This document shows positions 9,878-47,920 of a stretch of DNA of 64,000 nucleotides, one piece after another (positions within the stretch are counted from its first letter, which is position 1; each line of letters opens with the position of its first letter). The notes under the pieces are model-generated. The model did not search any database. It saw only the letters and a list, made by a program, of their open reading frames with translations, and was not told the DNA's origin. A program made the position numbers and the translations under genes. Source of the stretch: Mesonia aquimarina (GTDB lineage Bacteria; Bacteroidota; Bacteroidia; Flavobacteriales; Flavobacteriaceae); the NCBI RefSeq assembly GCF_003667275.1, contig NZ_RCNV01000007.1:62001-126000 (forward strand), given 5' to 3'.

Positions 9878-9895
9878 GCTTCTTGTGGTTTTTTA

Positions 9896-10493: not shown

Positions 10494-10497
10494 TAAA

Positions 10498-10528: not shown

Positions 10529-10551
10529 AATTTGTATACTCACTTTAAAAA

Positions 10552-10983: not shown

Positions 10984-10986
10984 AGT

Positions 10987-11748: not shown

Positions 11749-11802
11749 GTTGTTAGAGTTATTTTATTGCGAGAAAACAGCTATAAACCTTCACTTTGTA
11801 AA

Positions 11803-13197: not shown

Positions 13198-14468
13198 TAG
13201 AGTAATTCTTTTAAAATTGAAACCATATTGTAAACATCTTCATAAGAATTATAAATAGGAGCAGGGGCAATTCTAATCACGTTAGGTTCTCGCCAGTCGG
13301 CTATAACGCCGGCATTCATCAATTTATTGAATAATTCTTTATTGGCATTTTTAACTTTTATGGAAAGTTGACAACCTCTTTCTTCAGGATTTCTAGGTGT
13401 AATAATTTCAATTTGGTCGCCTTCAATTTCTTGTAGTAAGAATTCTAAATACCCGGTAAGTTCAACCGATTTTTTTCTGATATTTTCAAAACCGGCTTCA
13501 TCAAATAAATCTAAGGAAGCTCTAATTGCTGCCATCGATAAAATTGGAGGATTACTTAATTGCCAACCTTCGGCTCCGGGAATTGAATCAAATTCTTGGC
13601 GCATATTAAAACGCGTTTGTTTATTATGTCCCCACCAACCGGCAAAACGTTTTAAGCTGGAATCGTTGGCATGACGGTCGTGAACAAAACAGCCACCTAA
13701 ACTTCCCGGACCGCTATTTAAATATTTATAAGAACACCAAACCGCAAAATCGGGTCCGTTCTCATGTAAATTTGGTTGAATATTTCCCGCGCCGTGCGCA
13801 AGATCGATTCCTACTTTCGCATTGTGTTGGTGACCGAGTTCTGTGATTTTTTTTATCGGAAAAGATTGTCCGGTGTAATAATTTGTAGAACCAATAAGCA
13901 ATAAAGCAACCTCATCGCCGTGTTCTTTCATTATTTTTTCAAGGTCTTCAAATCGGCATAAATCTTCGCCCTCTCTAGGAGTCCATTGAACAAGGCCTTC
14001 TTTAGGATCAAATCCGTGAAAATCTATTTGCGATTCCATCGCATATTTATCTGAAGGAAAAGCATCACTTTCAATAACAATTTTGTATTTTTTTGAAGTG
14101 GGTCTGTAAAATGAAACCATCATTAAATGTAAGTTGGTAGTTAAGGTATTCATCATAACCACTTCGCTTGGGTTTGCTCCTACAATTTTCGCCATTTTTT
14201 CGGTCAAAAATTCGTGGTAAGGCATCCAAGGATGTTTAGCTTCGGTATGACCTTCTACACCAAATTTACTCCAGTCATTTAATTCTTCTTGTAAGTATTT
14301 TTGGGTGTTTTTTGGTTGTAAACCAAGCGAATTTCCGCAAAGGTAAACTTGCTCTTTTCCGTCTTTATTGGTAGGAATGTGAAATTCTTTTCTGAATTTA
14401 TGTAAAGGATCTTTTTGATCTTGTTCTTTGGCAAATGCCAAAGTATTCTCATATGAAGTTGTTGTCAT
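13197..14468 (-). CDS. kynU: Kynureninase
   Basis: A 423-residue fold-type I PLP enzyme. The cofactor aspartate is D222 in GIDLAHG and the Schiff-base lysine K248 in WCSYKYLNSGPG, the kynureninase signature. It cleaves 3-hydroxykynurenine to 3-hydroxyanthranilate and alanine. It is the first gene of the kynU-kmo-hydratase-RidA unit. A TAAATTTG -7 box lies 28-35 bp upstream of the ATG. Confidence 0.94.
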   Translation of the reverse strand: MTTTSYENTLAFAKEQDQKDPLHKFRKEFHIPTNKDGKEQVYLCGNSLGLQPKNTQKYLQEELNDWSKFGVEGHTEAKHPWMPYHEFLTEKMAKIVGANPSEVVMMNTLTTNLHLMMVSFYRPTSKKYKIVIESDAFPSDKYAMESQIDFHGFDPKEGLVQWTPREGEDLCRFEDLEKIMKEHGDEVALLLIGSTNYYTGQSFPIKKITELGHQHNAKVGIDLAHGAGNIQPNLHENGPDFAVWCSYKYLNSGPGSLGGCFVHDRHANDSSLKRFAGWWGHNKQTRFNMRQEFDSIPGAEGWQLSNPPILSMAAIRASLDLFDEAGFENIRKKSVELTGYLEFLLQEIEGDQIEIITPRNPEERGCQLSIKVKNANKELFNKLMNAGVIADWREPNVIRIAPAPIYNSYEDVYNMVSILKELL

Positions 14469-25108: not shown

Positions 25109-25870
25109 TTATAGTTTATTTTTTAGTTTAGTTAGTTCTTGTTCTAAAAACTGAAATTTTTCTTCCAGGTTTTCAGCACTATGATGTTCAGGAATCCTTT
25201 TATAAAACACATAACGTATTTTCCATAATTCTTTTACATCCTCTATTTTACAAGTAATATCGTTTATATTTTTATGGTCTGCCCGAAGTATAAATTTATT
25301 CTTTGTAATATATAGTCTCCTTAAAATCAGGTCATCATTAATCAAACCAAGAACAATATTGCCATTGTTTAATTTTTTATAAATATCTTTTGGTATAAAT
25401 TCTCCAATAACAATATCTTTAGGGTAAAGACCTCTATCGTGGTTGGTCATTTCTAAATTGATAACACTATAAGCTCTAAATGTTTTAGAAGGATTGATTG
25501 GAAGATGTAATGAAGGCAACTCATCAATAAAAACTTCATTTTTAAAATTAGAAATATAAGCTTTACTATTTTTTTCAGTTATGCAGGGAACAGTTGTAAA
25601 TTTTTCTTGAATTCCGATGCCTTCTTTAAGAGAAAAATCTCCCTTAAATCTTAAAAGGTGATTGACCGTTAATTCTTTTGTTAGCAAATCATCTATTGTG
25701 ATGCTAAAATAATTAGCTATTTTTATTATTGTTTCAATTCGAGGTTCGCTTCTTTGTTCCTCATAAGCTCCTAGCGTTCCACGTTTTAAGTTGAAAAGAT
25801 CCGCGAAAGCTTGCTGACTCATATTTTTTACATTCCGTATTTTCCTAATATTTTTACCAAAAAAAGACAT
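25109..25870 (-). CDS. XRE-family regulator with S24/LexA-like C-terminal domain
   Basis: A 253-residue protein with an N-terminal helix-turn-helix (residues 5-62; MSQQAFADLFNLKRGTLGAYE) and a C-terminal beta domain resembling the CI/LexA S24 fold (IVIGEFIPKD, GNIVLGLINDDLILRRLY). A short coiled coil follows. The serine-lysine dyad of self-cleaving members is not clearly present. It is divergent from the PspA/flotillin operon, across a region with repeated GCTAA/TTAGC sites, and is the likely regulator of that operon and itself. Confidence 0.82.
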   Translation of the reverse strand: MSFFGKNIRKIRNVKNMSQQAFADLFNLKRGTLGAYEEQRSEPRIETIIKIANYFSITIDDLLTKELTVNHLLRFKGDFSLKEGIGIQEKFTTVPCITEKNSKAYISNFKNEVFIDELPSLHLPINPSKTFRAYSVINLEMTNHDRGLYPKDIVIGEFIPKDIYKKLNNGNIVLGLINDDLILRRLYITKNKFILRADHKNINDITCKIEDVKELWKIRYVFYKRIPEHHSAENLEEKFQFLEQELTKLKNKL

Positions 25871-25872
25871 AT

Positions 25873-25992
25873 TTAGCTAATTTTATTTGCAATTATAATT
25901 TTTATTAGTATATTTACCTAACATTATTAGCTAATATACATTTTTTTGCTAAATATTTAGGTTTAAATTTTATTTAAGCTAAAATAATTAGC
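25873..25992. promoter_or_regulatory. Operator array of GCTAA/TTAGC palindromes
   Basis: Four symmetric sites lie in 120 bp: TTAGCTAA (25873-25880), TATTAGCTAATA (25925-25936), CTAAATATTTAG (25949-25960), and GCTAA-5-TTAGC (25978-25992). They lie between the XRE gene and the divergent operon and share the same half-site, as expected for cooperative repressor binding. Confidence 0.68.
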
Positions 25993-26129
25993 GTTAACTG
26001 TTAATTAAATTTTAAAACTATTCATTATGTTAACCGTAATTTTAATAACTTATGCCAAATTAATTTTCATCTTTGAAAATAGTCAATTGCTATGTCACTT
26101 ATTTCAATAACCTATAAACTTATTTGCAG

Positions 26130-26525
26130 ATGAAAGATCATTTTCAAATTACAAAAAACTATTTATTAGAATTGAACTTCAATATAACTTATGAGAATCG
26201 TGATGAGGAACTTATTGTAGTTCAAAAGGAAGCTTTTGGAATCAAAAACTTGATTTTAGGTGTTTCCCCTCCAGTTTTAATAATGGAACAATTTGTATTC
26301 AATATTAATAATCAATCTGATAAAATTTTTAAAAGTCTTCTTCAAAAAAATAGAGATATTATTCATGGAGCCTTTGTTCTTGATGAAAGCGGAAAGCGAG
26401 TGATTTTTAGAGATACCCTTCAAATAGAGAATTTAGACCTTAATGAGCTTGAAGGTTCATTAAATTCATTAAGCTTATTGATGAGTGAATATTCAGACAA
26501 AATAATAGAATTTTCAAAATATTAA
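26130..26525 (+). CDS. YjfI-like DUF2170 family protein
   Basis: A 131-residue protein started at ATG 26130; a TTG two codons upstream is possible. It resembles E. coli YjfI (DUF2170) in length and in the pattern of a KSLLQKNRDI helix, then a VIFRDTL strand, then a long C-terminal helix. DUF2170 proteins are encoded beside PspA-type proteins, and here PspA follows by 11 bp. The biochemical role is unknown; a partner of the PspA membrane-stress machinery is inferred. Confidence 0.7.
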   Translation: MKDHFQITKNYLLELNFNITYENRDEELIVVQKEAFGIKNLILGVSPPVLIMEQFVFNINNQSDKIFKSLLQKNRDIIHGAFVLDESGKRVIFRDTLQIENLDLNELEGSLNSLSLLMSEYSDKIIEFSKY

Positions 26526-26536
26526 AAACTACCGTT

Positions 26537-27250
26537 ATGAACATTTTTAGACGATTATTTAAAATAGGTCAGTCAGAAGCCAATTCTACCATTGACAAGA
26601 TGGAAGACCCTATTAAAATGACTGAACAAGGAATTAGAGACATGAAACAAGACTTAGAAAAGAGTCTAGAAGCTTTAGCTCAAGTAAAAGCATTAGCTAT
26701 TCGAGCAAAAAATGATCAGGAAGAACATCAAGATAAAGCGGAAGATTATCATAATAAAGCTATTTTAATCTTGAAAAAAGCCGAAAAAGAACAGATGGAA
26801 AAAGAGGAGGCAGATCGTCTTGCTAAACAAGCTTTATTAAAAAAAGAAGAATCACAACAACACGTAACACGTGCTAAAGAAGAAGTGAAAAAGTTCAATG
26901 AATCTATTATTCAACTTGAAAATAATATTCAGGGAATTAAAGCCAACATCAGTAACTGGGAGAATGAACTTAAAACTTTAAAAGCCCGCGTAAAAGTATC
27001 AAGTGCAACTAAGAACTTAAACAAACAAATGGCAGAAATTGATAGCTCAAGCACGGTTTCTATGCTAGAACGTATGAAAGAAAAAGTGGCACAAGAAGAA
27101 GCTTTAGCAGAAGCTTATGGCGATATTGCAAATGCATCTAAATCGATAGATGAAGAGCTTGAGAAAGCTGCAGATAGTTCTGAAGCAAAAGCCGATGACG
27201 ATTTATCTAAACTTAAAGAACAGTTAGGACTTAATAACAAAGACGCGTAA
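26537..27250 (+). CDS. PspA/IM30 family protein
   Basis: A 237-residue protein, almost entirely helical, with the PspA start FRRLFKIGQSEANSTIDKMEDPIKM and long coiled coils. PspA/Vipp1 relatives bind and remodel stressed inner membranes and assemble ESCRT-III-like polymers. It is the second gene of the operon, with 2 bp to the next gene. The coupling to YqiJ/YqiK-like proteins suggests a membrane-microdomain stress complex. Confidence 0.9.
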   Translation: MNIFRRLFKIGQSEANSTIDKMEDPIKMTEQGIRDMKQDLEKSLEALAQVKALAIRAKNDQEEHQDKAEDYHNKAILILKKAEKEQMEKEEADRLAKQALLKKEESQQHVTRAKEEVKKFNESIIQLENNIQGIKANISNWENELKTLKARVKVSSATKNLNKQMAEIDSSSTVSMLERMKEKVAQEEALAEAYGDIANASKSIDEELEKAADSSEAKADDDLSKLKEQLGLNNKDA

Positions 27251-27252
27251 CA

Positions 27253-27954
27253 TTGAACGATTTATTCAATATCATATTTTCTGAAGTAAACCTGGTACTT
27301 ACCTGCTTACTTATCTTGCTTATCGCTTACTGGATTTTAACCATGATTAGCGGAATTGATTTTGACTTAGATGTTGATGTAGATATTGATGTGGATGTAG
27401 ATGCCGATGTAGGGATCGAAGGTGGAAATATGGATTTTCAAGATGTTTCTAATGCCGAGGTTCATAAAGATACAGTCGTCGGTAAACGGCGACAGCCACT
27501 TAAATGGTGGCAGGTTTTTTTAATTTATTTCAATTTCGTCGGGCTGCCATTTATGTTCACTTTTACATGTTGGGTTTTTGTTTGGTGGTTTATTACCGTG
27601 TTTACCACAAGTATTACTTATACTTACGATTCAAGTTTCGGTTTTTTAATAATGATTTTAGCCTTTATTCCGGCGCTTATTATTACAAAAATCATTACCA
27701 CACCGTTCAAGAAGTTCTTTAAAAATCTAAATAAAGATGGTGATAAAGCAGTTGATTATATTGGTAGACGTGGCGTGATGCTTTCTACCATTACTGAAGA
27801 ACGAATGGGGAATGCCGAAGTGATTATTGATGGCAACTCTTACAATATTTATGTGAAATCACTCGATGGATCAACAATAGCCTATCATCAAGAAATTTTA
27901 ATTATCAACAAATCGAACGATAACAATTATTTTTTAGTACAAACCTATAACTAA
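27253..27954 (+). CDS. YqiJ-like OB-fold membrane protein with Asp-rich repeat
   Basis: A 233-residue protein with a TTG start (no suitable ATG). The plan is one membrane helix (about 10-32), an alternating Asp-hydrophobic stretch (about 36-56, DVDVDIDVDVDADVG), a cluster of further helices (about 85-155) and a C-terminal OB/NfeD-like domain (GRRGVMLSTITEERMGNAEVIIDG). YqiJ/NfeD proteins are partners of flotillins, and the flotillin gene follows by 16 bp. The Asp stretch is a candidate divalent-cation site. Confidence 0.84.
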   Translation: MNDLFNIIFSEVNLVLTCLLILLIAYWILTMISGIDFDLDVDVDIDVDVDADVGIEGGNMDFQDVSNAEVHKDTVVGKRRQPLKWWQVFLIYFNFVGLPFMFTFTCWVFVWWFITVFTTSITYTYDSSFGFLIMILAFIPALIITKIITTPFKKFFKNLNKDGDKAVDYIGRRGVMLSTITEERMGNAEVIIDGNSYNIYVKSLDGSTIAYHQEILIINKSNDNNYFLVQTYN

Positions 27955-27970
27955 TTTAACTTAATTTATT

Positions 27971-30061
27971 ATGGAAGGAATTTTACCTATTATCGGGATA
28001 GGACTGGGATTAGTCTTATTCTTAATCGTGATATACTTTGCTATAATCGCGATGTTTTACAAAAAAGTTCATCAAGGTCAAGCGCTTATTCGTACTGGTT
28101 TTGGAGGAACAAAAGTAGCAACCGACAAAGGGCTGTATGTAGTACCGGTTTTTCACCGTGTTGAAATTATGGACGTTTCGGTAAAGAAAATTCAAATCGA
28201 ACGTCAGGCACACGAAGGTCTTATCTGTAAAGACAATATGAGAGCAGATATTAAAGTCGCTTTTTTCGTTCGGGTTAATAATGACATTAGCTACATTAAA
28301 AAAGTAGCACAGACTATTGGTGTTGCTAGAGCTTCTCGAATAGAAACTTTAGAAGATCTCTTTGAAGCTAAGTTTTCTGAAGCTTTAAAAACCGTCGGTA
28401 AAAAGTTTGAATTTATCGAACTTTACGAGGCGCGTCGAGAATTTAGAGACGAGATTGTTAATATTATTGGTACAGATCTTAACGGCTACACCCTAGAAGA
28501 TTGTGCGATAGATTTCTTAGAGCAAACTCCTGTACAACATTTAAAAGCAGATAATATTTTAGATGCAGAGGGAATAAAAAAGATCACCGATCTTACCGCT
28601 GCTCAAAATGTAAAAGCCAATTTAATTAAACGTGACGAAGAAAAAACCATCCGTAAACAAGATGTAGAAGCACGGGAAGCTATTCTTGAACTAGATAAGC
28701 AACTGGCTGAAAAAGAAGAGTCTCAAAAGCGTGAAATTGCCAACATTAAAGCAAGAGAAGGGGCCGAAACACTAAAAGTGGCAGAAGAAGAGCGCTTAAA
28801 GTCTGAAACCGCCCGTATTGCTACCGAAGAAAAGGTGAAGGTTGCAGAAGAGAATATGAACCGTCAAATTATTGTAGCAGAGAAAAATAAACTACGTACC
28901 GATGCTGTGGAAACGGAACGCGTAGAAAAAGATCGTTTGCTTGAAGCTACAGAACGAGAACGTGTGGTCACTTTAGCTCAAATTGAAAAAGAAAAAGTAG
29001 TTGAAGTTGAGAAGAAAAACATTCAAGATGTCATTAGAGATCGTGTGATGTTAGAGAAAGGAGTAGTTGAGGAGCAAGAAAATATGAAAGATATTGAAGC
29101 CTTTAAAACTGCCGATCGTGATAAGAAAGTAAAAGTAACTAATGCCGAAGCTCACGCACAAGAAGAATTAATTAAAACCATTAAAGCTGCTGAAGCTCAA
29201 AAAGAAGCGGCAAAACAAAAAGCAGAAGAAATTAATATTGAAGCGATGGCTCGTAAAGATGCCAGTGAAAAAGAAGCAGAAGCCAGAAAAACATTAGCCG
29301 AAGCTCAAGCCAAAGAAGAAGCGATTATCGGTATGTCTGAGGCTCAGGTAATGCACGCAAAAGCAGATGCTAATGAGCGTCAAGGAATTGTAGATGCTTC
29401 TATTATCGAGAAAAAAGCGAAAGCAGAAGCTGCCGGTATCGAAGCAAAAGCGGAAGCTTCTAGAAAAGAAGGAAAAGCTGAAGCTGAAGTTATTAAAGAA
29501 AAAGCGTTAGCAGATGCTGCCGGAATTGAAGAAAAAGCCGCTGCAATGAAAAAACTTGACGGTGTAGGTAAAGATCACGAAGAGTTTAAATTACGCTTAG
29601 ATAAAGAATTGCAAATTGATTTAGCCAATATAAATATTCAAAAAGATATTGCTGATGCCCAGGCACAGGTTCTAGGTGACGCTCTGAAACAAGCGAAGAT
29701 TGATATTGTTGGAGGCGAAACGATGTTCTTCGATAATATTGTATCGCAAATTAGTCGAGGTAAAGGTATAGATAGACTGGTCCAAAATAGTGAGAACATT
29801 CAGCAGGTAAAAGATTCAATTTTGGGAAGTGATGATATTAAAGGTAATTTATTAGAAAAAGTAAGGGAGTTTGCTGCCAAATATGGAATATCCACAGAAG
29901 ATTTAAAAAACCTAACCATTGCGAATCTTTTAATCGATTTAAAGAATAGAACTAATAGTGATAAAGAACATACAATGTTCAATAATTTATTTAATCTGGC
30001 TGAAGGCTTAGGATTATCGAATAAGACCATTGGAGCTGTAGGAAAAGAGCGTTTAAGCTAA
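27971..30061 (+). CDS. YqiK-like flotillin family protein
   Basis: A 696-residue protein with one N-terminal membrane segment (about 8-30), an SPFH/band 7 domain (about 40-210; GFGGTKVATDKGLYVVPVFH) and a very long Glu/Ala/Lys-rich coiled coil (about 215-560; repeats such as AEAAGIEAKAEASRKEG). A C-terminal oligomerisation region follows. Flotillins scaffold ordered membrane domains. With the YqiJ-like gene upstream this is the yqiJK arrangement. The operon segment ends at the hairpin at 30071. Confidence 0.92.
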   Translation: MEGILPIIGIGLGLVLFLIVIYFAIIAMFYKKVHQGQALIRTGFGGTKVATDKGLYVVPVFHRVEIMDVSVKKIQIERQAHEGLICKDNMRADIKVAFFVRVNNDISYIKKVAQTIGVARASRIETLEDLFEAKFSEALKTVGKKFEFIELYEARREFRDEIVNIIGTDLNGYTLEDCAIDFLEQTPVQHLKADNILDAEGIKKITDLTAAQNVKANLIKRDEEKTIRKQDVEAREAILELDKQLAEKEESQKREIANIKAREGAETLKVAEEERLKSETARIATEEKVKVAEENMNRQIIVAEKNKLRTDAVETERVEKDRLLEATERERVVTLAQIEKEKVVEVEKKNIQDVIRDRVMLEKGVVEEQENMKDIEAFKTADRDKKVKVTNAEAHAQEELIKTIKAAEAQKEAAKQKAEEINIEAMARKDASEKEAEARKTLAEAQAKEEAIIGMSEAQVMHAKADANERQGIVDASIIEKKAKAEAAGIEAKAEASRKEGKAEAEVIKEKALADAAGIEEKAAAMKKLDGVGKDHEEFKLRLDKELQIDLANINIQKDIADAQAQVLGDALKQAKIDIVGGETMFFDNIVSQISRGKGIDRLVQNSENIQQVKDSILGSDDIKGNLLEKVREFAAKYGISTEDLKNLTIANLLIDLKNRTNSDKEHTMFNNLFNLAEGLGLSNKTIGAVGKERLS

Positions 30062-30070
30062 ACTAAAATT

Positions 30071-30105
30071 AACCTACAAGGTTTAGAAAATCTTGTAGGT
30101 TTTTA
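30071..30105 (+). terminator. Rho-independent terminator after the flotillin gene
   Basis: A 10 bp stem AACCTACAAG (30071-30080) / CTTGTAGGTT (30092-30101), loop GTTTAGAAAAT, then T residues. It lies 10 bp past the stop codon. Confidence 0.85.
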
Positions 30106-30370
30106 TAGAAGATTACAATCATTTTCATGCTGGATTGTGATTTGCTTTCAGTTCAAGTCATTCGGCGAAACTCAATACGAGCGGAGTCGAGAACTATATA
30201 GCACCTAAAATTGAGTGTCACCCTGAACTTGTTTCAGGGTCTCATTTAGATGATTTCAAAATGAGGATTTGATGCTGAGTCAAGCTCAGCATGAAGTTCA
30301 TTTTAAATACAATTCAATTTCTTTTTAATATTCAGAAGGAATCACACTAACCTCTTGTTCAAAAATTACT
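30106..30370. repeat. Gap between flotillin and AAA genes: extragenic palindromes
   Basis: This stretch is the only part of the window that, with the terminator, exceeds 300 bp without a gene. It holds two palindrome types seen widely in Flavobacteriia: a TCGACTCCGCTCG-like unit (minus strand, about 30166-30194), and a paired unit of CACCCTGAACTTGTTTCAGGG (30219-30240, shown split) and TGCTGAG-TCAAG-CTCAGCA (about 30273-30291). The latter has the same plan as the centre of the repeats at 35240 and 41471. No reading frame is evident. Confidence 0.6.
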
Positions 30371-33300
30371 ATGCAAGAAGAAGAACAAAACAACCAAGCC
30401 TTAGACGGCGGTACTTACGAGATTATAAAGAGCAGATTGCAAAAGCAGAAGCAAGAGCTTCAACAGCGGTTGCAGCAACTTAACGAAAACAGAAAAGAAG
30501 TTTTCGGTTCTTTGGAAACTAAACTCATCGCCAATAATCGCATCAATACAGAGAATAACTGTATTGCCAGAGATATCGTTTCTATCGATGAGCTTTGCAT
30601 TTTCGGCTATAATGTTCATTTTGGTTTACGAACTGAAATCACATTAGAAGATGTCTTCAGTATTTATCAATATAAAGATCAGCAATTTGAGCCGGTATCA
30701 TTAGCATTGATCGAAAATGATACCTTTCAGACTGATTTTACCAACCTTTACAAATATTACAGAAATACCATTTTTTCCAAGTTTGCCGTTATTGGTAATT
30801 ACTTGCATATGGTTTTTCAACTGAGTGATAGTGTAACCGATATTAAAACCTTTAAATGGTTAATTAAGGATGGGAAGTTAAACTACATTGATAATCGAAG
30901 TGAGCACGAATATAAATTTCCGCAGCAGCATGAATTCAATTGGCAACAAGCTGGAAGAGACGAACAACGCCACGGTGAACACGCTCACATTTCTATTTTA
31001 GATAGAGTGTTTGTTGAAACCATTGGCGGCGATCTCACCATTAAAATTGAAGATAATACCAACGACGGAAAAGGAATTTATAACGAGCCTGTAGAATACC
31101 AAGATCAAACCTTAGATGACGGTCAGTTTAGGTTTGCTAACTTGGGTAATCTTATTGTGTTAGAGATTAAACCTTTTCAAGAAGACGCTCGTTATTTTGT
31201 TTACAATCATAAATTACAAGAAGTTCAAAAAATAGATAGCATAAAGGATGCTGCTGTTTTACTACCCGATGAACAAGGAATAATTTTCCCCAACGGGTAT
31301 TACTTGCAAACCGGGGAATATCAGATTTTTGATAGTGACACGCAAAACTTAAAATTTCAAAAGCGAATAGCTTCCCCAAATGGAGAAGATTACCTCTTTG
31401 TGTTTTACGCACAAGATCGTGGGATGTATGTGTTAATGTCTTACAATGTGATCGAGCAAACCGTACAAACACCTATTATTTGTAACGGATATACCGTTCA
31501 GCCCAATGGTGAATTATGCTATTTTAAAGGGGAAGACGATCAGACTAAGCATCATATGGTGCAAATTTGGCAAACGCCATTTTTAAAAGGTGATATTATG
31601 CCTTCGCAGCATCAAGACACGATGTTGTATAAAATTGGTAATAAAGACATTGTTCGTGCGATGGCCGAAGCACAAGAATTAATTAATCTCCTGAGCAAAG
31701 AAGATAATTATAGCGGACTTTATGACGACGTAGCCAAGCTTTCTAAAGACATTTTAGACGCTTATTATTGGCTATCTGAAGAAGAAACGCAACAGTTAAA
31801 TCTTCCTTTAGTTGAAATTAATAAAGCTGCAAATTCGGCAATCGACGAGTTTGAGAAAGTCGTTCAGCTGAAGCGAAATGCGAAAAAAGAAACCGAAAAA
31901 TTCACTAAGAAAGCAGAAGAAGTTTTTTCTAAAGTAAAAAGCACTTCGTTTAAATCTATCGAAGATTTTGTGAAGCTTTTAAATCAGATGCGGACCTTAA
32001 GAGGGGAAGCGATTGGTTTGTATGAAATTAGGTATATCGATGAAAAGTTCATCAAATCTATTGAAGAAGAAATAGCAACATATACCGAGAAAATTTCTCA
32101 GCGTTGTGTGCAGTTTTTATTAGACGATAAAGCCTTAGCTCCGTATCATCAAAAAGTTGAAGAAAAAGAGCAAACACTCGATCGCATAGAGAAAGTTATC
32201 GACGCCAAAAAGTTAGAAGAAGAAGTCAATCAAATTGCGCAAGAGTTAGAAATGCTTATTGAAATTGTTTCTAACCTCGATATTGAAGACACTTCACATT
32301 CAACTAAAATCATTGATAATATTTCGTTGATTTTTGCAACACTCAATCAGTTAAAAGCAGCGATTAAAAACAAGCGCAAAAATTTAGGCAGTAAAGAAGC
32401 CAAAGCCGATTTTGCAGCGCAGTTAAAATTGATTGATCAGAGCATTATCAATTATTTAGATATTGCCGATACCGTAGAAAAAACCGATGATTTTCAAACT
32501 AAAATTTCAATTCAGTTAGAAGAGCTAGAAGGTAAATTTGCCGATTTTGATGTCTTTATTACCCAAATCATCGAAAAGCGAGAAGAAGTTTACAATGCCT
32601 TTGAAGCTAGAAAAAACTCGATTACAGAAAAACGTAATAAGCGAAGTTTAGCGCTAGAAAATGCTGCTGAAAGAATTTTGAAAGGAGTAGATAAGCGAGC
32701 CTTAAATTTAGGTTCTGCGAACGAGATCAATGGCTATTTTGCATCTGACTTAATGGTGAATAAGCTTCGGGACATTATTCAGCAATTAAAAAATTTAGAA
32801 AATTCTGGTCGAGCAGAAGAGATCGAAACCAAATTAAAAGTTGCTCGAGAAGATGCGTTACGTAAGCTAAAAGATAAGTTAGAGTTATATGAAGACGGCG
32901 ACAACGTCATCAAATTTGGGAAACATAAATTTGGAGTAAACAAGCAAAACCTCGATTTAACCATTGTTTACCGAAATAATGAATTACAATATCATTTAAC
33001 AGGAACAGATTTTTACGAAGAAGTCACTAATTCAACCTTATTAAATTCCAGAAGTCTTTGGGATCAAGAGTATATTTCTGAAAGTGATGAGGTGTATCGA
33101 AGTGCGTATTTAGCCTATAAATTATTCCGCAGTTTACCGTTTTCAACTTTAGTGAATGCAAACGCAGAAGAGCTGTTGAAAATTGTTCAAGAGCAAAGCA
33201 GTAGCAATTATGCTGAAGGTTATGTAAAAGGAGTTCACGATCGTGATGCTGTCGATATTTTGTCGGTTCTGGTTCGTAAACATCAAGAGTTAGGTTTGCT

Positions 33301-35233
33301 TCGTTTTTCACCTAAAACCAGAGCACAAGCACATTTTTTTTGGCATAGTTTACCTGAAGAAATTCAACAGAAATTTAATGAAGCTTTAAAATCTTCAGGA
33401 GAAGTGTTGAGCTTTTTTCCGGATACCAAAGAATACGATTTTTTATTGCAGCAATTAGAAAAAGAAATCTTGCAAGTTGCTGAGAATTCGGTGTTGTTTT
33501 CTTCAGAAAGTAGCAAAGCGATGGCGAGTTATTTATTTGAAGAATTGCAAGACGACGATCAGTTTCAAATTAGTGGAGATGCACTGAAAATGAAAGAAGA
33601 TTTCATGAAGACGCTTCAGCAAAAACAAGCCGATCTGAAATTTAAAAATAGTTATGAAAAATTGGATGAGCTGGAAGCTAAAATTCAGCTGATCCGACAA
33701 TGGGTGAAATCTTTCCTTAGAACTTCTTCCACTAACTATGATGAAAACTATTTAGATGAAGTGGTGAGCGTGATTTTATTTTCCGATGATTCGGTTGAAA
33801 AAGTAAAACACATTCCGGCAAGCGAAAGCATTCAAAATTTAAAAGGAGATCATCCAAGTTTAAAAGAAGGTGAATTTCAATTTAATTACCATCAATTCAT
33901 TGAAAATTTAGCGGAATATATTGAAGAAGTAGTTCCGGCATTTCAGCAGTTTAAAAAAGCAAAACATGAGATTACTGAAAGTTTAAAAGAAGAATTGAAG
34001 CTGGAAGAATTAAAACCTCGCGTATTAACTTCTTTCGTAAGAAATAAACTGATCAACGAAGTGTATTTACCGCTTTTTGGAGATAATCTCTCCAAGCAAT
34101 TGGGAACCGTGGGCGACAATAAACGGACGGATAGAATGGGGATGTTGCTATTAATTTCGCCACCGGGTTACGGTAAAACTACTTTGATGGAATATATCGC
34201 TAACCGATTAGGATTGGTATTTATGAAAATTAACGGGCCGGCAATTGGGCACGAAGTAACTTCGGTAGATCCTGCAGCAGCCAATAATTCTGCAGCGCGA
34301 GAAGAATTAAAACGCCTGAATTTAGCTTTTGAAATGGGAAATAATGTGATGTTGTATTTAGATGACATTCAGCATTGCCACCCCGAATTTTTACAGAAGT
34401 TTATTTCACTTTCCGACGGAACTCGAAAAATAGAAGGAGTTTACAAAGAGAAATCTAAAACCTACGATTTACGCGGAAAGAAATTCTGTGTGATTATGGC
34501 AGGAAACCCCTATACCGAAAGCGGAGAAAAATTCAGGGTCCCTGATATGTTGGCAAATCGAGCCGATATTTATAATTTAGGAGATGTAATTGGGGATACT
34601 TCAGATTTATTCAAGTTGAGTTTGATAGAAAATGCACTCACCTCTAATACAACTTTGCAGCAGTTAAGCAGTAAGAATTTTGACGATATTTATAAGCTGA
34701 TTGATCGTGTAGAAAATAACAATCCTGAAATTCAATTAGAAGGTAATCATACACCACAAGAAATTCAAGATTACGTTTCTGTATTAGAGAAAGTCATTAC
34801 GATAAGAGATACCGTATTGCGGGTAAATGAAACCTACATCAAATCTGCTGCGATGGAAGACGAATACAGAACAGAACCACCATTTAAATTACAAGGTTCT
34901 TATAGAGATATGAATAAATTGATCGGAAAAGTGGTGCCAATTATGAATAAAGAAGAACTTTCTACTTTATTACTGTCTCATTATGAAAGTGAATCGCAAA
35001 CCTTAACTACTTCCGCAGAAGCAAATTTATTGAAGTTTAAAGAACTTCGGAACAATTTAAGTCCGCATGAAAGTGAGCGTTGGGAAACCATTAAAGAAAC
35101 TTTCGTAAAAAACAATAAGTTGAAAGGCTTAGGCAGTAAAAACGAAATGGCACAAATGCTAAATCAAATGATGGCGTTTACCGATAATTTGGAAGGAATT
35201 AAAGATGTTTTAGAAAAAGGATTAAAAGACTAA
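30371..35233 (+). CDS. Giant AAA+ ATPase of the DUF3686 'DNA repair ATPase' type
   Basis: A 1620-residue protein with no signal peptide. The N-terminal 450 residues form a beta-rich repeat-like domain (DUF3686 type, with ARYFVYNHKLQEVQKID-like strands). A long coiled coil spans about 450-900, and further helical domains lead to a C-terminal AAA+ module with Walker A PPGYGKTT (1264-1271) and Walker B LYLDD (D1331, D1332). Such proteins occur beside flotillin/PspA operons. The name 'DNA repair' in databases is not well founded. It probably works with the membrane-stress proteins upstream; hairpins 5' may give it separate regulation. Confidence 0.85.
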   Translation: MQEEEQNNQALDGGTYEIIKSRLQKQKQELQQRLQQLNENRKEVFGSLETKLIANNRINTENNCIARDIVSIDELCIFGYNVHFGLRTEITLEDVFSIYQYKDQQFEPVSLALIENDTFQTDFTNLYKYYRNTIFSKFAVIGNYLHMVFQLSDSVTDIKTFKWLIKDGKLNYIDNRSEHEYKFPQQHEFNWQQAGRDEQRHGEHAHISILDRVFVETIGGDLTIKIEDNTNDGKGIYNEPVEYQDQTLDDGQFRFANLGNLIVLEIKPFQEDARYFVYNHKLQEVQKIDSIKDAAVLLPDEQGIIFPNGYYLQTGEYQIFDSDTQNLKFQKRIASPNGEDYLFVFYAQDRGMYVLMSYNVIEQTVQTPIICNGYTVQPNGELCYFKGEDDQTKHHMVQIWQTPFLKGDIMPSQHQDTMLYKIGNKDIVRAMAEAQELINLLSKEDNYSGLYDDVAKLSKDILDAYYWLSEEETQQLNLPLVEINKAANSAIDEFEKVVQLKRNAKKETEKFTKKAEEVFSKVKSTSFKSIEDFVKLLNQMRTLRGEAIGLYEIRYIDEKFIKSIEEEIATYTEKISQRCVQFLLDDKALAPYHQKVEEKEQTLDRIEKVIDAKKLEEEVNQIAQELEMLIEIVSNLDIEDTSHSTKIIDNISLIFATLNQLKAAIKNKRKNLGSKEAKADFAAQLKLIDQSIINYLDIADTVEKTDDFQTKISIQLEELEGKFADFDVFITQIIEKREEVYNAFEARKNSITEKRNKRSLALENAAERILKGVDKRALNLGSANEINGYFASDLMVNKLRDIIQQLKNLENSGRAEEIETKLKVAREDALRKLKDKLELYEDGDNVIKFGKHKFGVNKQNLDLTIVYRNNELQYHLTGTDFYEEVTNSTLLNSRSLWDQEYISESDEVYRSAYLAYKLFRSLPFSTLVNANAEELLKIVQEQSSSNYAEGYVKGVHDRDAVDILSVLVRKHQELGLLRFSPKTRAQAHFFWHSLPEEIQQKFNEALKSSGEVLSFFPDTKEYDFLLQQLEKEILQVAENSVLFSSESSKAMASYLFEELQDDDQFQISGDALKMKEDFMKTLQQKQADLKFKNSYEKLDELEAKIQLIRQWVKSFLRTSSTNYDENYLDEVVSVILFSDDSVEKVKHIPASESIQNLKGDHPSLKEGEFQFNYHQFIENLAEYIEEVVPAFQQFKKAKHEITESLKEELKLEELKPRVLTSFVRNKLINEVYLPLFGDNLSKQLGTVGDNKRTDRMGMLLLISPPGYGKTTLMEYIANRLGLVFMKINGPAIGHEVTSVDPAAANNSAAREELKRLNLAFEMGNNVMLYLDDIQHCHPEFLQKFISLSDGTRKIEGVYKEKSKTYDLRGKKFCVIMAGNPYTESGEKFRVPDMLANRADIYNLGDVIGDTSDLFKLSLIENALTSNTTLQQLSSKNFDDIYKLIDRVENNNPEIQLEGNHTPQEIQDYVSVLEKVITIRDTVLRVNETYIKSAAMEDEYRTEPPFKLQGSYRDMNKLIGKVVPIMNKEELSTLLLSHYESESQTLTTSAEANLLKFKELRNNLSPHESERWETIKETFVKNNKLKGLGSKNEMAQMLNQMMAFTDNLEGIKDVLEKGLKD

Positions 35234-35384: not shown

Positions 35385-36797
<1,413 letters not shown>

Positions 36798-36805
36798 TTA
36801 AATTA

Positions 36806-36865
36806 GCTCCGTTACCTCCTCGTGTAACGGAGCGCTAGTTACAGGTTCGAACTCCGTCTTAACTA
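36806..36865 (-). promoter_or_regulatory. Structured leader upstream of rtcB with alternative pairings
   Basis: GCTCCGTTAC (36806-36815) and GTAACGGAGC (36824-36833) form a perfect 10 bp stem whose loop reads ACGAGGAG on the minus strand. Upstream in the rtcB transcript, GTAAC (36842-36838) and ACGGAG (36857-36852) could pair with the same 5' strand instead, giving mutually exclusive hairpins. On the plus strand 36841-36857 resembles a tRNA T-arm (ACAGG, loop TTCGAAC, TCCGT, one mismatch). No complete tRNA can be folded. Confidence 0.5.
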
Positions 36866-36880
36866 CAATACAAATATTTA

Positions 36881-36913
36881 TTGTTAACTGCGCAATCTTT
36901 TTGCGTAGTTTTG
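36881..36913 (+). promoter_or_regulatory. Promoter and operator-like repeat for the WYL regulator
   Basis: TTG (36881-36883), 22 bp spacer and TAGTTTTG (36906-36913) fit the Bacteroidota -33/-7 pattern. Overlapping it is the inverted repeat AACTGCGCAA (36886-36895) / TTGCGTAGTT (36901-36910), 9 of 10 positions matching, a likely regulator binding site. Confidence 0.68.
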
Positions 36914-36934
36914 TTTTTCTTAAATTTTATTTTT

Positions 36935-37951
36935 ATGGCAGTTACAAAGAATGCTCTAATACGGTATAAAACCATTGATAAATGCCTGCAAAATCATTAC
37001 CGAAAATGGACATTAAATGATTTGATTGAGCAATGTTCTGACGCATTATATGATTTTGAAGGAAGAGCTGTAAATGTAAGTAAACGTACCATTCAGTTGG
37101 ATATTCAGTTAATGCGAAGTGATAAATTGGGTTATAATGCTCCGATTGAAGTATATGAAAAGAAATTTTACAGGTATGGCAATCCAGATTACAGTATTAC
37201 CAATATTCCGTTAACCGAAAACGATATGAATATTCTAACCGAAACAATGAATATGCTTAAACAATTTGAGGATTTTTCATTGTTTGGTGAATTTAAAGGA
37301 GTATTGCATAAATTAGAAGATAAATTATATTCAGAAAAAAATCATCAGCCTTCAATTATTCATTTGGATAGAAACGTAGAGCTACAAGGTTTAGAATGGT
37401 TAGATGAATTATACCAAGCTATTTTAAAGCAAGTAGTTTTAAAAATAATATATCAATCATTTAAGGCTATATATCCTTCAGAAATTATATTTCATCCGCA
37501 TTTGCTAAAAGAATTTAATAACCGATGGTTTTTAGTAGGTAAAAATAGTACAAGTAATAAGGTGTTAACATTAGCTTTAGACCGAATTTTAGGAATAGAT
37601 TACGACTTTAAGACAGCGTATATTTCAGCAGATTATAATACCGAAGAATATTACAAAGATACGATTGGAGTAACTGTTTTAGAGGAAAGAAATTTAACCG
37701 AAATAATATTTAAAGTAGATGATAAAAATGCTCCTTATGTTAGGACTAAACCTTTTCATGCTTCTCAAAAAATAGTAGATAGGCATAAAGATGGAAGCAT
37801 TACCTTTAAAATGAAAGTTCATCAAAATTTTGAGTTGGAGCGGCTTTTTCTTGGTTTTGCAGAAACCTTAGAAGTTCTAGCGCCAAAAAAATTAAGAAGA
37901 AGAATAGCCTATAAATTAAAAAAAGCCGCAGAAAATTATACAATGACTTAA
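36935..37951 (+). CDS. WYL-domain transcriptional regulator
   Basis: A 338-residue protein started at ATG 36935; the longer frame from 36881 would begin inside the promoter. An N-terminal winged helix (about 1-80; WTLNDLIEQCSDAL, SKRTIQLDIQLMRS) is followed by a WYL domain (about 155-230; NRWFLVGKN, LALDRILGI) and a C-terminal WCX-like extension. WYL domains sense nucleic-acid fragments or nucleotides in several stress and defence systems. Divergent from rtcB, it probably controls the ligase. Its 3' end overlaps the convergent helicase gene by 4 bp. Confidence 0.87.
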   Translation: MAVTKNALIRYKTIDKCLQNHYRKWTLNDLIEQCSDALYDFEGRAVNVSKRTIQLDIQLMRSDKLGYNAPIEVYEKKFYRYGNPDYSITNIPLTENDMNILTETMNMLKQFEDFSLFGEFKGVLHKLEDKLYSEKNHQPSIIHLDRNVELQGLEWLDELYQAILKQVVLKIIYQSFKAIYPSEIIFHPHLLKEFNNRWFLVGKNSTSNKVLTLALDRILGIDYDFKTAYISADYNTEEYYKDTIGVTVLEERNLTEIIFKVDDKNAPYVRTKPFHASQKIVDRHKDGSITFKMKVHQNFELERLFLGFAETLEVLAPKKLRRRIAYKLKKAAENYTMT

Positions 37952-40641
37952 TAAATAAATTTTATCAGCTCTTTTATAGCTTTTTGCCGATCTTTTTTCC
38001 AAAAGCTATAATGGAGCGGTAAACTTTTTATCCCTGTTCTACCTAAAGTTTTGTAACGCTCTAAATTAAAAGCTTCTCGGTATTTTCCCGGATAACCAAT
38101 TAAATCGATAAAATAATTTTTCTCGCGGTGGGTCACTAAAATATCTAATAAGCTTCCGGCTACCGGATAGCCACATTTAATTTCTTCAATTCCTTCTTTT
38201 TTTAACGCTGCAACCACTTCGTTTTGAAATTGATCTGTTGAATTTTCTTCAGCATTAAAATGAATAAAATTTTCGATAAAATCTAAGTATTGATAAAATA
38301 AAGAATCTTGTTTTAACTGATTTTTTTCTACCGAAGTAATTATAATTTGAAGTGATTTTGCACGTGTAATTGCTACATTTAAAACTTCTGGTTTGTTGAG
38401 GTGAATGTAAGCAGAATGATGCGTATTGGGACAAACTCCAAAAGTCATGAGAATAATTTCACGTTCTGAACCTTGAAAATTATAAGGCGTTCCGCATAAA
38501 ACATTAAATTGTTTTAAGGTTGAAAGCTCGTAATGTTCTCTTAAAAGTTTTTTAAGATGAGTAACTTGACTATTAAATGGCGAAATAATTCCGATAGAAG
38601 GTTTTAGCTTCACTTCTTTATAGTTTTTAATAATCGTATCTAACTGCTGTAAAACTTGTAGAGCTTCTTTTTCATTTATTCCTTTTTTATTTCTTTCTCC
38701 ATTTACGTTAATCAGATCGATTTGTTTTTCATTAGTATGATTTGGAGTAGATTTTAAAACTTCTAATTGTCCATCGTAAAATTGACGATTGCTAAATTCG
38801 ATTAGCGAAGGTGTAGAACGAAAATGTTCTCGCAAAAAACTGATTTGATTTTGATGTTTCGCTTTCGCGATAAAAACGTCTAACACACTTCTATTGCGAT
38901 AATCGAAAATTTTGTCTTTTGGTAGTTTGTATTTTTTCTGTAAATTAAATTGCTGAGCTTTGGCTACAAAAGAATAATGCCGTAATTGATTTGGATCTCC
39001 TGCAATTACTACACGTTTAGCTCTATATAAAGCAGGTAGCGCAGAAGCAATGTCGCACTGTGTAGCTTCATCTATAATTACCAAATCGAAACTATCTTTT
39101 TTTAAAGGTAAAACGGCATTAAGTTCAGATAAATTAGCAAGCCAAATAGGAAAAACTTTTAAAACGTGCTCGAAATCTACTTGCTGAAGAATTCGCTTAT
39201 ATTCAGAAAAACTTGAAGAATCCAAGGCGTCGAAAAATTGTGAAATTTCATTGCGATAACGATGAGCGTTATTTTTAATGTTAAGTGCAATTTTTCGTTT
39301 AGAATATAAACTGACTTCTTTTTCTAATTGCTTTAAAACTTGATTAATTTCTTTAAAAATGAACCATAATTCTTCACCGTTATAAGAAATTCTATTCAAA
39401 TAAAAATTTTGCCATTTTTCCCAGAGGTTGAGTTTATTTAAAAATTCTAGATCAGAGCGTCTTAGTTCTTCTTCAATATAATCTTCAAATTCCTGTTCAA
39501 GTTTAGCTAGTTTGTTAGAAAGATTTTCAATTTTATTAAGGTCAAAATCTTTTTGTATTCTTGCTGAAATCCCACTTAAATATCGTTTTATTTTTGCTCT
39601 TAAGCTTACTTTATAATTATGACCGGTCGTGTGAATTAGATAATTTTTCAGCTTAAAATCCTTCTCTAACATAGTTCGTAAAACTTCAACCGCTTGTTTG
39701 GTTTTAGAAACCACTAAAACCGATTGATTATTTACGACAGCATCAGAAATAATGGAGGTAATCGTATAGCTTTTACCGGTTCCTGGCGGACCTACAATTA
39801 CGGAATTTGAATAATGATAAGCATTTTGCAAGGCTGTATATTGTTCGGCATTTAAACGCGTTTTGTAGAAACTTTTTTCAAAAGGAAATTCACGTAAATT
39901 ACTACTTAAGAGATTAGTTAAACTGGAGTTGAATTCGGCTTTTTTTGCCATTTCTTTCAAATCATTTAAAACCCGTAAAGAAGATTCAGACTTTTCAACT
40001 AAAATAGTTCCTGCGGCGGGGACAATTTGAAAATTATCACTTTCAATTTTTTCAGAAGAAAGATAGCTTCTTATTTTTTGAATTGACCAAACCGTAGGAA
40101 ATAACAGTAATTCTTCAGTTTCTAAATTTGCTACGTATTTGTCTATAAAACTTTTTAAACCAATATAATTATGATTGTTAATGCGTTCTGAAAGTCGGCG
40201 AATAAATTCGTCTTTATCAATAATTTCTTCATTCAGTTCTAGTAAACTTAGCGCCGATCTGTTAATCTCAAAATTTTCATGTTCTATTTTCAAAAACTTT
40301 TCTTCATCTAGCGTTTCAATACTTGCAGGAAAAAGTAGGAGTGGAGCGCAAACTCGATTATCTTTAGTTAACGGATTTTCATTTTTACCCAATACAAAAA
40401 AACAGCCGTAAAACAATTTTTTCTCTAAATTGTAAAGTTCCATTTCCTTTTCTAAAGCCAAAACTTTTTTATTTGTGTATGGTACTAAAGGAAAATTTTC
40501 ATAAAGTAATTCTTCCTTGGTTTTCGCGAACCACTTGTAAGTATATTTGGCAGAAAGAATATTGTTTATGGTAAACTCTTTATAATCTAATTGATAGCAA
40601 CTTCTATAGTAATTGAAAAAATCTTGCGCGTTAAAATTCAC
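37948..40641 (-). CDS. SF1 (Upf1/DNA2-like) helicase with C-terminal nuclease-like domain
   Basis: An 897-residue superfamily 1 helicase: Walker A GPPGTGKS (284-291), Walker B with DEAT in VIIDEATQCD, GDPNQL (motif III), and NVAITRAK (motif VI). The last about 90 residues (FQNEVVAALKKEGIEE, YPVAGSLLDILV, YFIDLIGYPG) resemble the REase_MTES_1575/Vsr-type PD-(D/E)xK fold, with the usual ExDG changed to DLIG, so catalytic activity is uncertain. Helicase-nuclease fusions of this kind are frequent in defence islands. It is next to rtcB-WYL. Confidence 0.84.
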   Translation of the reverse strand: MNFNAQDFFNYYRSCYQLDYKEFTINNILSAKYTYKWFAKTKEELLYENFPLVPYTNKKVLALEKEMELYNLEKKLFYGCFFVLGKNENPLTKDNRVCAPLLLFPASIETLDEEKFLKIEHENFEINRSALSLLELNEEIIDKDEFIRRLSERINNHNYIGLKSFIDKYVANLETEELLLFPTVWSIQKIRSYLSSEKIESDNFQIVPAAGTILVEKSESSLRVLNDLKEMAKKAEFNSSLTNLLSSNLREFPFEKSFYKTRLNAEQYTALQNAYHYSNSVIVGPPGTGKSYTITSIISDAVVNNQSVLVVSKTKQAVEVLRTMLEKDFKLKNYLIHTTGHNYKVSLRAKIKRYLSGISARIQKDFDLNKIENLSNKLAKLEQEFEDYIEEELRRSDLEFLNKLNLWEKWQNFYLNRISYNGEELWFIFKEINQVLKQLEKEVSLYSKRKIALNIKNNAHRYRNEISQFFDALDSSSFSEYKRILQQVDFEHVLKVFPIWLANLSELNAVLPLKKDSFDLVIIDEATQCDIASALPALYRAKRVVIAGDPNQLRHYSFVAKAQQFNLQKKYKLPKDKIFDYRNRSVLDVFIAKAKHQNQISFLREHFRSTPSLIEFSNRQFYDGQLEVLKSTPNHTNEKQIDLINVNGERNKKGINEKEALQVLQQLDTIIKNYKEVKLKPSIGIISPFNSQVTHLKKLLREHYELSTLKQFNVLCGTPYNFQGSEREIILMTFGVCPNTHHSAYIHLNKPEVLNVAITRAKSLQIIITSVEKNQLKQDSLFYQYLDFIENFIHFNAEENSTDQFQNEVVAALKKEGIEEIKCGYPVAGSLLDILVTHREKNYFIDLIGYPGKYREAFNLERYKTLGRTGIKSLPLHYSFWKKDRQKAIKELIKFIY

Positions 40642-47914: not shown

Positions 47915-47920
47915 AAAAAG

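What the first reader, a model, noticed from the sequence alone, without database searches (positions are those of the whole stretch)
25109..35233. Six-gene membrane-stress module: XRE/S24, DUF2170, PspA, YqiJ-like, flotillin, DUF3686 AAA+ ATPase
Pairs such as DUF2170-PspA and YqiJ-YqiK are known, but here they form one unit with a 1620-residue AAA+ ATPase of unknown action. The ATPase has an N-terminal beta domain and a long coiled coil and could remodel PspA/flotillin assemblies, much as Vps4 acts on ESCRT-III. This is the strongest candidate for an incompletely described system.
Basis: partly seen in the sequence, partly recalled or inferred. Interest (0 to 1): 0.75.

Follow-up and report, generated by a model that had tools for sequence, protein, structure and literature searches.

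The report
Stress operon joining PspA and flotillin
This is a membrane-stress gene set, already described in outline, in which a large ATP-driven machine turns out to be tied to flotillin rather than to PspA, and in which a tiny water-repelling protein and a likely repressor site had gone unlisted.

Summary
The arrangement is in print: Ravi et al. 2024 (PMC11237479, section 19) describe CesT/Tir-PspA with flotillin, YqiJ/YuaF and this AAA+ ATPase, and suggest ESCRT-like roles. 'DUF2170' is not met; gene 2 is CesT_Tir_1.

Added here: (1) The ATPase's constant neighbours are YqiJ and flotillin (70 of 71 loci), not PspA (47 of 71). Of 24 genomes with the ATPase but no PspA seen in the operon, 12 have none over the cut-off anywhere. 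(2) The AAA+ core has a pre-sensor-1 hairpin and sensor-2 Arg, pointing away from Vps4, though sequence matches are best to p97-type proteins; its motifs are invariant in 92 of 92. (3) A divergent XRE regulator faces a likely promoter with a palindrome behind it. (4) A hydrophobic 12-27-residue micro-ORF lies in the leader: 30 of 48 regions, at most 9 in shuffles, with codon-like conservation.

Likely mechanism: a stress-induced kit whose ATPase remodels the flotillin scaffold, with PspA an optional partner. Untested.

The parts
25109..25870 (-). XRE-family (HTH_3) regulator with a degenerate S24-like C-terminal domain, divergent from the operon
   Evidence: HTH_3 4.6e-11, Peptidase_S24 0.0018 (below cut-off); by eye, against the LexA motif as recalled, the Ser is Glu in 5 of 6 long members (Ser in L015) and the Lys is Arg in 6 of 6
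25886..25916 (+). Candidate Bacteroidota sigma-A promoter facing the operon: TTTG (25886-25889), 19 nt, TATATTTA (25909-25916)
   Evidence: -7 consensus TAnnTTTG from PMC9723704 passages, one mismatch; the TTTG element is recalled
25925..25936 (.). Perfect palindrome TATTAGCTAATA, candidate operator of the XRE regulator
   Evidence: exact in 17 of 48 XRE-CesT intergenic regions, 0 copies in the other 1.2 Mb of the same loci; alignment of 8 regions that hold it
26027..26110 (+). Micro-ORF, 27 codons, hydrophobic peptide; unlisted seventh gene
   Evidence: 30 of 48 vs shuffle mean 3.8, max 9; variable columns by codon position 43/20/48 of 75 each
26130..26525 (+). CesT_Tir_1 chaperone-like protein (PF22550), neighbour of PspA
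   Evidence: E 6.5e-56; ATG at 26130
26537..27250 (+). PspA/IM30 protein, the only PF04012 match of this genome
   Evidence: E 8.7e-43
27253..27954 (+). YqiJ/NfeD-like membrane protein: three hydrophobic segments, Asp-rich stretch, C-terminal soluble part
   Evidence: alignment; 5 of 15 members hit YqiJ_N, 1 NfeD, the window copy none
27971..30061 (+). Flotillin: one N-terminal hydrophobic segment, Band_7, long Ala/Glu-rich stretch (coiled coil by eye)
   Evidence: Band_7 7.8e-14
30071..30101 (+). Terminator-like hairpin after flotillin
   Evidence: -16.6 kcal/mol, z -3.95, 1 of 200 shuffles folds as well; not listed by the terminator scan
30371..35233 (+). DUF3686-DUF7902-AAA+ ATPase, 1620 aa: propeller-like beta domain (about 50-400), long helical part (about 420-840), AAA+ (about 1206-1520)
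   Evidence: AlphaFold2 models; Foldseek; motifs 92 of 92

Best explanation
A stress-induced inner-membrane maintenance operon built from two separable halves. Half one (YqiJ-flotillin-ATPase) is the ATPase's constant setting: YqiJ and flotillin form a membrane-bound scaffold, and the ATPase, a single-AAA+ motor carrying a beta-propeller and coiled-coil arms, docks on that scaffold and uses ATP to remodel, dismantle or pull clients from it, much as FtsH works with the SPFH proteins HflKC. Half two (XRE regulator, micro-peptide, CesT-like protein, PspA) was joined to it in Bacteroidota (a different PspA operon was joined to it on the Pseudomonas plasmid pQBR103): the CesT-like protein holds PspA in reserve, PspA coats damaged membrane, and the flotillin platform recruits it. 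The XRE protein probably represses the operon by binding the palindrome just downstream of the promoter's -7 box; its S24-like domain, lacking the LexA Ser-Lys pair, senses a ligand or partner rather than cutting itself. Shown: gene content, order, dissociation of the two halves, intact ATPase motifs, a conserved palindrome, selection on the micro-ORF. Inferred: all physical contacts, the remodelling action, the sign of regulation, the stress signal.
For: Triad in 70 of 71 loci with over 6 kb upstream, and flotillin next to the ATPase in 11 of 11 distant plasmid/chromid records from Proteobacteria, Actinobacteria, Deinococcus and Hymenobacter, YqiJ-like in 10 of 11 (some weak), PspA in 2 of 11. 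The PspA label needs 8 changes (7 forced by supported branches) on a 92-row ATPase tree, 83 rows scored, while flotillin is found in every scored row but L075. 12 of 24 genomes with the ATPase but no PspA seen in the operon lack PspA over the cut-off. AAA+ motifs invariant in 92 of 92. SPFH-AAA+ precedent (YbbK and HflK/C with FtsH) in PMC2636767 passages; SPFH-dependent PspA localisation in B. subtilis in PMC8581546 passages. BacA-BacB (DUF2170-PspA) binding, cited as unpublished, in PMC10948618 passages. Palindrome, micro-ORF.
Against: No contact between ATPase and flotillin has been measured; neighbourhood can reflect shared regulation only. A terminator-like hairpin lies between flotillin and ATPase and many relatives have other genes inserted there, so tight co-expression is doubtful. 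L075 has the ATPase with no flotillin found in its locus. 12 of the 24 PspA-less-operon genomes do have a PspA elsewhere, as Ravi et al. propose. The palindrome is exact in only 17 of 48 regions. Walker B has Asp where Glu is usual, so turnover may be slow.
Confidence: 0.45

Rival explanations
1. Vps4-like: the ATPase disassembles PspA polymers as Vps4 does ESCRT-III (first reader; Ravi et al. suggest ESCRT-like roles for PspA with AAA+ proteins).
For: PspA in the operon in 47 of 71 loci; printed suggestion; 12 of 24 genomes without PspA in the operon have one elsewhere; best sequence matches of the AAA+ core are classical AAA proteins (VCP-like, Rix7) and Pfam AAA scores above AAA_5; module PspA tails keep a short Leu/Lys-rich motif, though the same kind of tail is in PspAs without the ATPase.
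Against: 12 of 24 genomes with the ATPase and no PspA seen in the operon have no PspA over the cut-off; no MIT hit in Pfam; pre-sensor-1 hairpin and sensor-2 Arg (criteria recalled); 11 of 19 genomes with a strong CesT_Tir_1 have no DUF3686 ATPase. A divergent ESCRT-III-like protein missed by PF04012 is not excluded.
Confidence: 0.17
2. Protein quality control: the ATPase is an unfoldase for membrane clients held in the flotillin cage, handing them to a protease encoded elsewhere.
For: YbbK/HflKC-FtsH precedent; Foldseek hits to ClpA and FtsH AAA+.
Against: No protease domain among its Pfam hits and no protease as a repeated neighbour in the six annotated plasmid stretches I read; pQBR103 has a rhomboid gene nearby, a single case.
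Confidence: 0.15
3. DNA repair ATPase, as databases name it.
For: Annotated so in several plasmid records and in the Pfam description of DUF3686; weak RuvB hits.
Against: Constant neighbours are membrane proteins; RuvB similarity covers the shared AAA+ core only; no paper found with flotillin plus 'DNA repair ATPase' or with DUF3686.
Confidence: 0.05
4. Anti-phage defence unit acting on the membrane.
For: Patchy distribution (8 of 296 phylum genomes, 5 of 16 genus genomes) and a cassette beside genes that genus mates also have; XRE regulator.
Against: PADLOC gives HTH hits for the regulator, two JetC hits for the coiled-coil PspA and one AAA hit (mad8, E 0.0021) for the ATPase, and nothing for the other three; no match in the phage collection.
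Confidence: 0.08

Closest known systems
CesT/Tir-PspA + band-7/flotillin + AAA+ (coiled coil, beta-propeller) + YqiJ/YuaF operon (Ravi et al. 2024, PMC11237479; example ANH61663.1)
   Same: Same five protein kinds; same domain make-up of the ATPase; abbreviated flotillin-YqiJ-ATPase versions also described (section 19 read whole; passages)
   Different: XRE/S24-like regulator, palindrome, micro-ORF and terminator-like hairpin are not in what I read (figures, tables and supplements not seen); the paper suggests the short version may use PspA encoded elsewhere, which fits 12 and not 12 of the 24 genomes
E. coli yqiJ-yqiK and B. subtilis yuaF-yuaG (NfeD2-SPFH2; PMC2636767 passages)
   Same: YqiJ/NfeD-like membrane protein with a flotillin
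   Different: No DUF3686 ATPase: PF12458 rings in 0 of 14 control genomes, E. coli and B. subtilis among them (named)
HflK/C and YbbK (QmcA) with FtsH (PMC2636767 passages); prohibitin with m-AAA (recalled)
   Same: SPFH scaffold with an AAA+ partner
   Different: Here the ATPase has a propeller and coiled coil, no protease domain among its Pfam hits and no hydrophobic segment over the threshold
P. aeruginosa bac operon / E. coli yjfIJ (DUF2170-PspA), PMC10948618 passages
   Same: CesT-like protein directly before a PspA homologue
   Different: DUF2170 family; no ATPase or flotillin partner described in the passages I read

Membership tests
Ravi et al. CesT/Tir-PspA-flotillin-AAA+-YqiJ operon class | CesT/Tir gene directly followed by pspA | tested here: met
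   PF22550 then PF04012, 11 nt apart
Ravi et al. [quoted passage not shown]
   Band_7; hydrophobic segment 7-25; coiled coil by eye; no separate flotillin-domain hit
Ravi et al. [quoted passage not shown]
   AlphaFold2 pLDDT 87.2 and 85.5; proteins I recall as propellers among the Foldseek hits, low TM
Ravi et al. CesT/Tir-PspA-flotillin-AAA+-YqiJ operon class | 3TM YqiJ/YuaF-like protein | tested here: met
   three hydrophobic segments; 5 of 15 family members hit YqiJ_N, the window copy none
Vps4 | MIT domain | tested here: not met
   no MIT in the Pfam scan at E 0.01
Vps4 | Classical AAA core, without pre-sensor-1 beta-hairpin and sensor-2 Arg (criterion recalled) | tested here: not met
   strands 1353-1358 and 1361-1366 before the sensor-1 strand in the model; GSYR with Arg1512 in 92 of 92. 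Against: best PDB sequence matches are classical AAA proteins, around Walker A, Pfam AAA 1.7e-7 beside AAA_5 6.5e-7, and FtsH and a proteasome chain are among the Foldseek hits
Vps4 | Obligate ESCRT-III-type partner | tested here: not met
   PspA absent over the cut-off in 12 of 24 genomes; other ESCRT-III families not searched
PS1-hairpin AAA+ (Clp, RuvB, MoxR/NorQ/CbbQ, dynein) | Walker A, Walker B, sensor 1, Arg finger, sensor 2, PS1 hairpin | tested here: met
   (ClpA, RuvB, dynein, NorQ, CbbQ hits); residue roles recalled; Walker B second acid is Asp; the clade within the group is unsettled, and see the contrary matches in the Vps4 row
LexA/CI autoproteolytic S24 repressors | Ser-Lys catalytic pair | tested here: not met
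   by eye against the recalled LexA motif: Ser replaced by Glu in 5 of 6 long members (Ser kept in L015), Lys by Arg in 6 of 6; the other 4 of 10 have a shorter, unlike C-terminus; 6 of 10 hit Peptidase_S24, which ones is not told
DUF2170 (YjfI) | PF09938 match | tested here: not met
   only CesT_Tir_1, CesT and YbjN at E 0.01
Flotillin- or PspA-remodelling ATPase | Physical ATPase-flotillin or ATPase-PspA contact | not testable with these tools
   no complex prediction or bench work available

The most novel reading that the evidence does not exclude
The DUF3686 ATPase is a dedicated soluble motor of bacterial flotillin (SPFH2) scaffolds, a kind of partner I do not recall for them, working with or without PspA across phyla; and in Flavobacteriaceae the composite operon carries a 12-27-residue membrane micro-protein that couples the membrane to PspA/CesT or to expression of the operon.
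Probability: 0.3. Interest if true: 0.72.

Novelty: new member of a known kind. Interest (0 to 1): 0.48.

Why it matters
As far as I recall, bacterial flotillins have no agreed job and bacterial PspA has no known disassembly ATPase. The dissociation test says where to look: the ATPase belongs with flotillin first. That makes a direct experiment possible and argues against both the database name 'DNA repair ATPase' and the Vps4 analogy. The micro-ORF and the palindrome would give a handle on how the operon is switched on.

Tried and rejected
Considered and rejected: the DUF2170 label; Vps4 membership; the PspA tail as a special docking motif for the ATPase, because the same kind of tail is in PspAs without the ATPase; a flotillin tail specific to the ATPase, because the C-terminus is the least conserved part and differs between phyla; defence system; phage carriage.

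Led nowhere: sigma-70 scan of the region, at the shuffled expectation (34 found, mean 34.7); search for DUF3686 in papers (0); Rfam found only a tmRNA elsewhere in the window; PDB by sequence: the 60 of 96 matches shown cover at most a stretch around Walker A, of p97-type, Rix7 and RuvB proteins among others.

1 of 12 plasmid records (H3, Proteus like H2) was not fetched. One search took 23 of the 24 no-PspA loci (L075 was left out) plus L089, which has only 1.9 kb upstream of its YqiJ-like gene. Of the 12 genomes without PspA over the cut-off, 7 are MAGs by title (L058, which has one sub-threshold match, L059, L060, L064, L084, L088, L099) and 5 are not (L055, L073, L074, L097, L103); completeness is not told. 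The XRE absence next to 12 CesT-PspA dyads holds for the stretches fetched, one of which (L158) is short. The FastTree carries long-branch and composition warnings. The micro-ORF criteria were set after seeing examples; 18 of 48 regions do not meet them; in Leeuwenhoekiella alone the codon-position counts are weak. The chi-square values use pairwise counts that are not independent and are not relied on; one search counts two genomes twice (L020/L048, L022/L024), one search leaves L020 and L022 out. L163 has a 32-aa ORF of lower hydropathy (0.76) upstream of CesT. One search aligned 8 of the regions that hold the palindrome, chosen by me.
Full report
1. Observation. The six genes are present at the stated places. 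Pfam names five of them: XRE (HTH_3, with a sub-threshold S24 match), CesT_Tir_1, PspA_IM30, Band_7, and DUF3686 + DUF7902 + AAA. Gene 2 is CesT_Tir_1, not DUF2170. Gene 4 has no Pfam or NCBIfam hit; of 15 aligned family members, itself included, 5 hit YqiJ_N and 1 NfeD, and it has three hydrophobic segments. PADLOC gives HTH hits for the regulator, two JetC hits for PspA and one weak AAA hit for the ATPase.

2. What is in print. Ravi et al. 2024 (PMC11237479; section 19 read whole; [quoted passage not shown] So the arrangement and the analogy are not new. I found no paper with DUF3686, none with flotillin and 'DNA repair ATPase', and no experiment on the ATPase in the listings. Popp et al. 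2022 (PMC9239133, passages) note band-7 genes next to pspA in Bacteroidota, and HTH regulators in PspA operons in a passage on Acidobacteriota.

3. Distribution. DUF3686 is in 8 of 296 genomes of the phylum sample and 5 of 16 of the genus, the window's own genome counted in both. In 11 of 11 other loci fetched from these the six genes are in the same order. In genus mates the left flank (thioredoxins, rhodaneses) also exists without the module: a close homologue of the second thioredoxin-like protein (56% identity or more) is in 11 of 16 genomes, 6 of them without the ATPase, and in the six stretches fetched no module gene was matched (L180 is short). The module behaves as a cassette that is gained or lost.

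4. Which partner is constant? A scan of genome contigs gave at least 579 relatives; the best 80 were kept. Of 71 with over 6 kb upstream, 46 have XRE-CesT-PspA-YqiJ-flotillin-ATPase (3 with a second or split flotillin ORF), 22 YqiJ-flotillin-ATPase only, 1 PspA without a detected XRE or CesT, 1 XRE without CesT-PspA, 1 the ATPase alone. So the triad is in 70 of 71. Eleven distant ATPases in plasmid or chromid records: flotillin in 11, YqiJ-like in 10 (some weak), PspA in 2. On a FastTree of 92 ATPases, 83 of them scored, the PspA label needs 8 changes, 7 forced by supported branches. In 24 genomes with the ATPase but no PspA seen in the operon, 12 have no PspA over the Pfam cut-off, 11 of these no match at all; the other 12 do have one elsewhere. 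Conversely, of 19 phylum genomes with a strong CesT_Tir_1 (over 150 bits), 8 have the ATPase. The XRE gene was found next to 0 of 12 CesT-PspA dyads without the ATPase, and neither were YqiJ or flotillin (11 dyads and one genus mate), so it goes with the composite. In independent tree pairs XRE and PspA go the same way in about 5 of 6, never opposite, which is too few pairs for significance.

5. The ATPase. AlphaFold2 models of residues 700-1620 (pLDDT 85.5, pTM 0.65) and 1-785 (87.2, 0.66) come from alignments of 56 and 49 sequences. Strands 1353-1358 and 1361-1366 stand before the sensor-1 strand. SPPGYGKT, Y-x-DDIQH, N1379, R1397 and GSYR1512 are invariant in 92 of 92. Foldseek hits for the C-terminal part include ClpA, RuvB, dynein, NorQ and CbbQ (best E 2.5e-4, TM by target up to 0.55) and, lower down, FtsH and a proteasome chain (50 of 547 shown). 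Hits for the N-terminal part include IFT-A, Elp1-containing, CyRPA and prolyl oligopeptidase chains, which I recall as propeller proteins, and long coiled-coil chains of axonemes (best E 1.2e-5, low TM). Residue roles and clade names are recalled. Against this reading, the best PDB matches by sequence are classical AAA proteins (VCP-like, Rix7) and Pfam's AAA scores slightly above AAA_5. An active motor of the PS1-hairpin group is the likelier reading; the tests of Vps4 membership that I could run fail.

6. Regulation and the hidden gene. Between XRE and CesT lies TATTAGCTAATA (25925-25936), exact in 17 of 48 such regions and nowhere else in 1.2 Mb of the same loci; a second palindrome type is exact in 9 of 48. 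It follows a likely sigma-A promoter (TTTG, 19 nt, TATATTTA; -7 consensus in PMC9723704 passages; alignment of 8 regions), where a repressor would block transcription. Further down the leader is a hydrophobic micro-ORF (26027-26110). An ATG ORF of 12-30 codons with mean hydropathy of 1 or more, ending 15-100 nt before CesT, is in 30 of 48 regions, against 5 on the other strand and a mean of 3.8 (maximum 9 in 300 runs) in first-order shuffles; at hydropathy 2 or more 17, 0 and at most 3. In four clades (22 rows) lengths are constant but for one row, and variable columns by codon position are 43, 20 and 48 of 75 each, against 64, 68 and 60 of 80 in the 60 nt upstream, compared without gaps. This is the pattern of a translated, selected peptide. 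In the 12 CesT-PspA dyads without XRE no ORF of 12-40 codons reaches hydropathy 1 in the 300 nt upstream.

7. Operon structure. CesT, PspA, YqiJ and flotillin are 2 to 16 nt apart. The ATPase follows after 309 nt that hold a terminator-like hairpin (-16.6 kcal/mol, z -3.95, 1 of 200 shuffles as good), and in many relatives other ORFs sit there. The ATPase may be made in smaller amounts by read-through.

8. Mechanism. I commit to a flotillin-centred remodelling motor with PspA as an optional client or co-worker (0.45), over a Vps4-like PspA disassembler (0.17), a quality-control unfoldase (0.15), defence (0.08) and DNA repair (0.05). Nothing here shows contact or action; the argument rests on co-occurrence, invariant active-site motifs and the HflK/C-FtsH precedent (PMC2636767 passages).

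9. Verdict. The locus is a further member of a published operon class. The additions are a test that separates the ATPase from PspA, a reading of its AAA+ type, the regulator with a candidate operator, and a selected micro-ORF.

Noticed in passing
L104 (pQBR103, NC_009444.1) 1034-14238: YjfI-PspA-rhomboid-DUF2491-DUF350-DUF1190-glutathionylspermidine synthase-YqiJ-like-SPFH-ATPase lie in one run on a Pseudomonas plasmid, joining a yjfI-type PspA operon with the flotillin-ATPase triad.
   Followed up: partly
window 30062-30370 and the same gap in L027, L036, L039, L040, L052, L063, L083, L095: The flotillin-ATPase gap collects inserted ORFs that look by eye like small endonucleases or transposase-type proteins; in the window it holds inverted repeats seen by eye.
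   Followed up: partly
L032, L035, L038, L039, L043, L057 between PspA and YqiJ: Aquimarina relatives carry an extra conserved 104-aa gene in the operon (by eye YbjQ-like, not tested), and L038 and L043 a second, short flotillin-like ORF.
   Followed up: no
ATPase residues 1331-1332 (window 34361-34366): Walker B reads DD, not DE, in 92 of 92 sequences, as I recall for DnaA-type AAA+ proteins; turnover may be slow.
   Followed up: partly
L070 about 3447-3704: In place of the micro-ORF a Rufibacter relative has an 85-residue ORF with hydrophobic stretches (by eye) between XRE and CesT.
   Followed up: no
window 35385-40641: An RtcB-like, a WYL-type and a helicase-like ORF lie downstream (names by eye); the helicase-like ORF is also near the module in L022.
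   Followed up: no
window 47918-48317 (-): tmRNA gene, tag peptide GENNYALAA.
   Followed up: no
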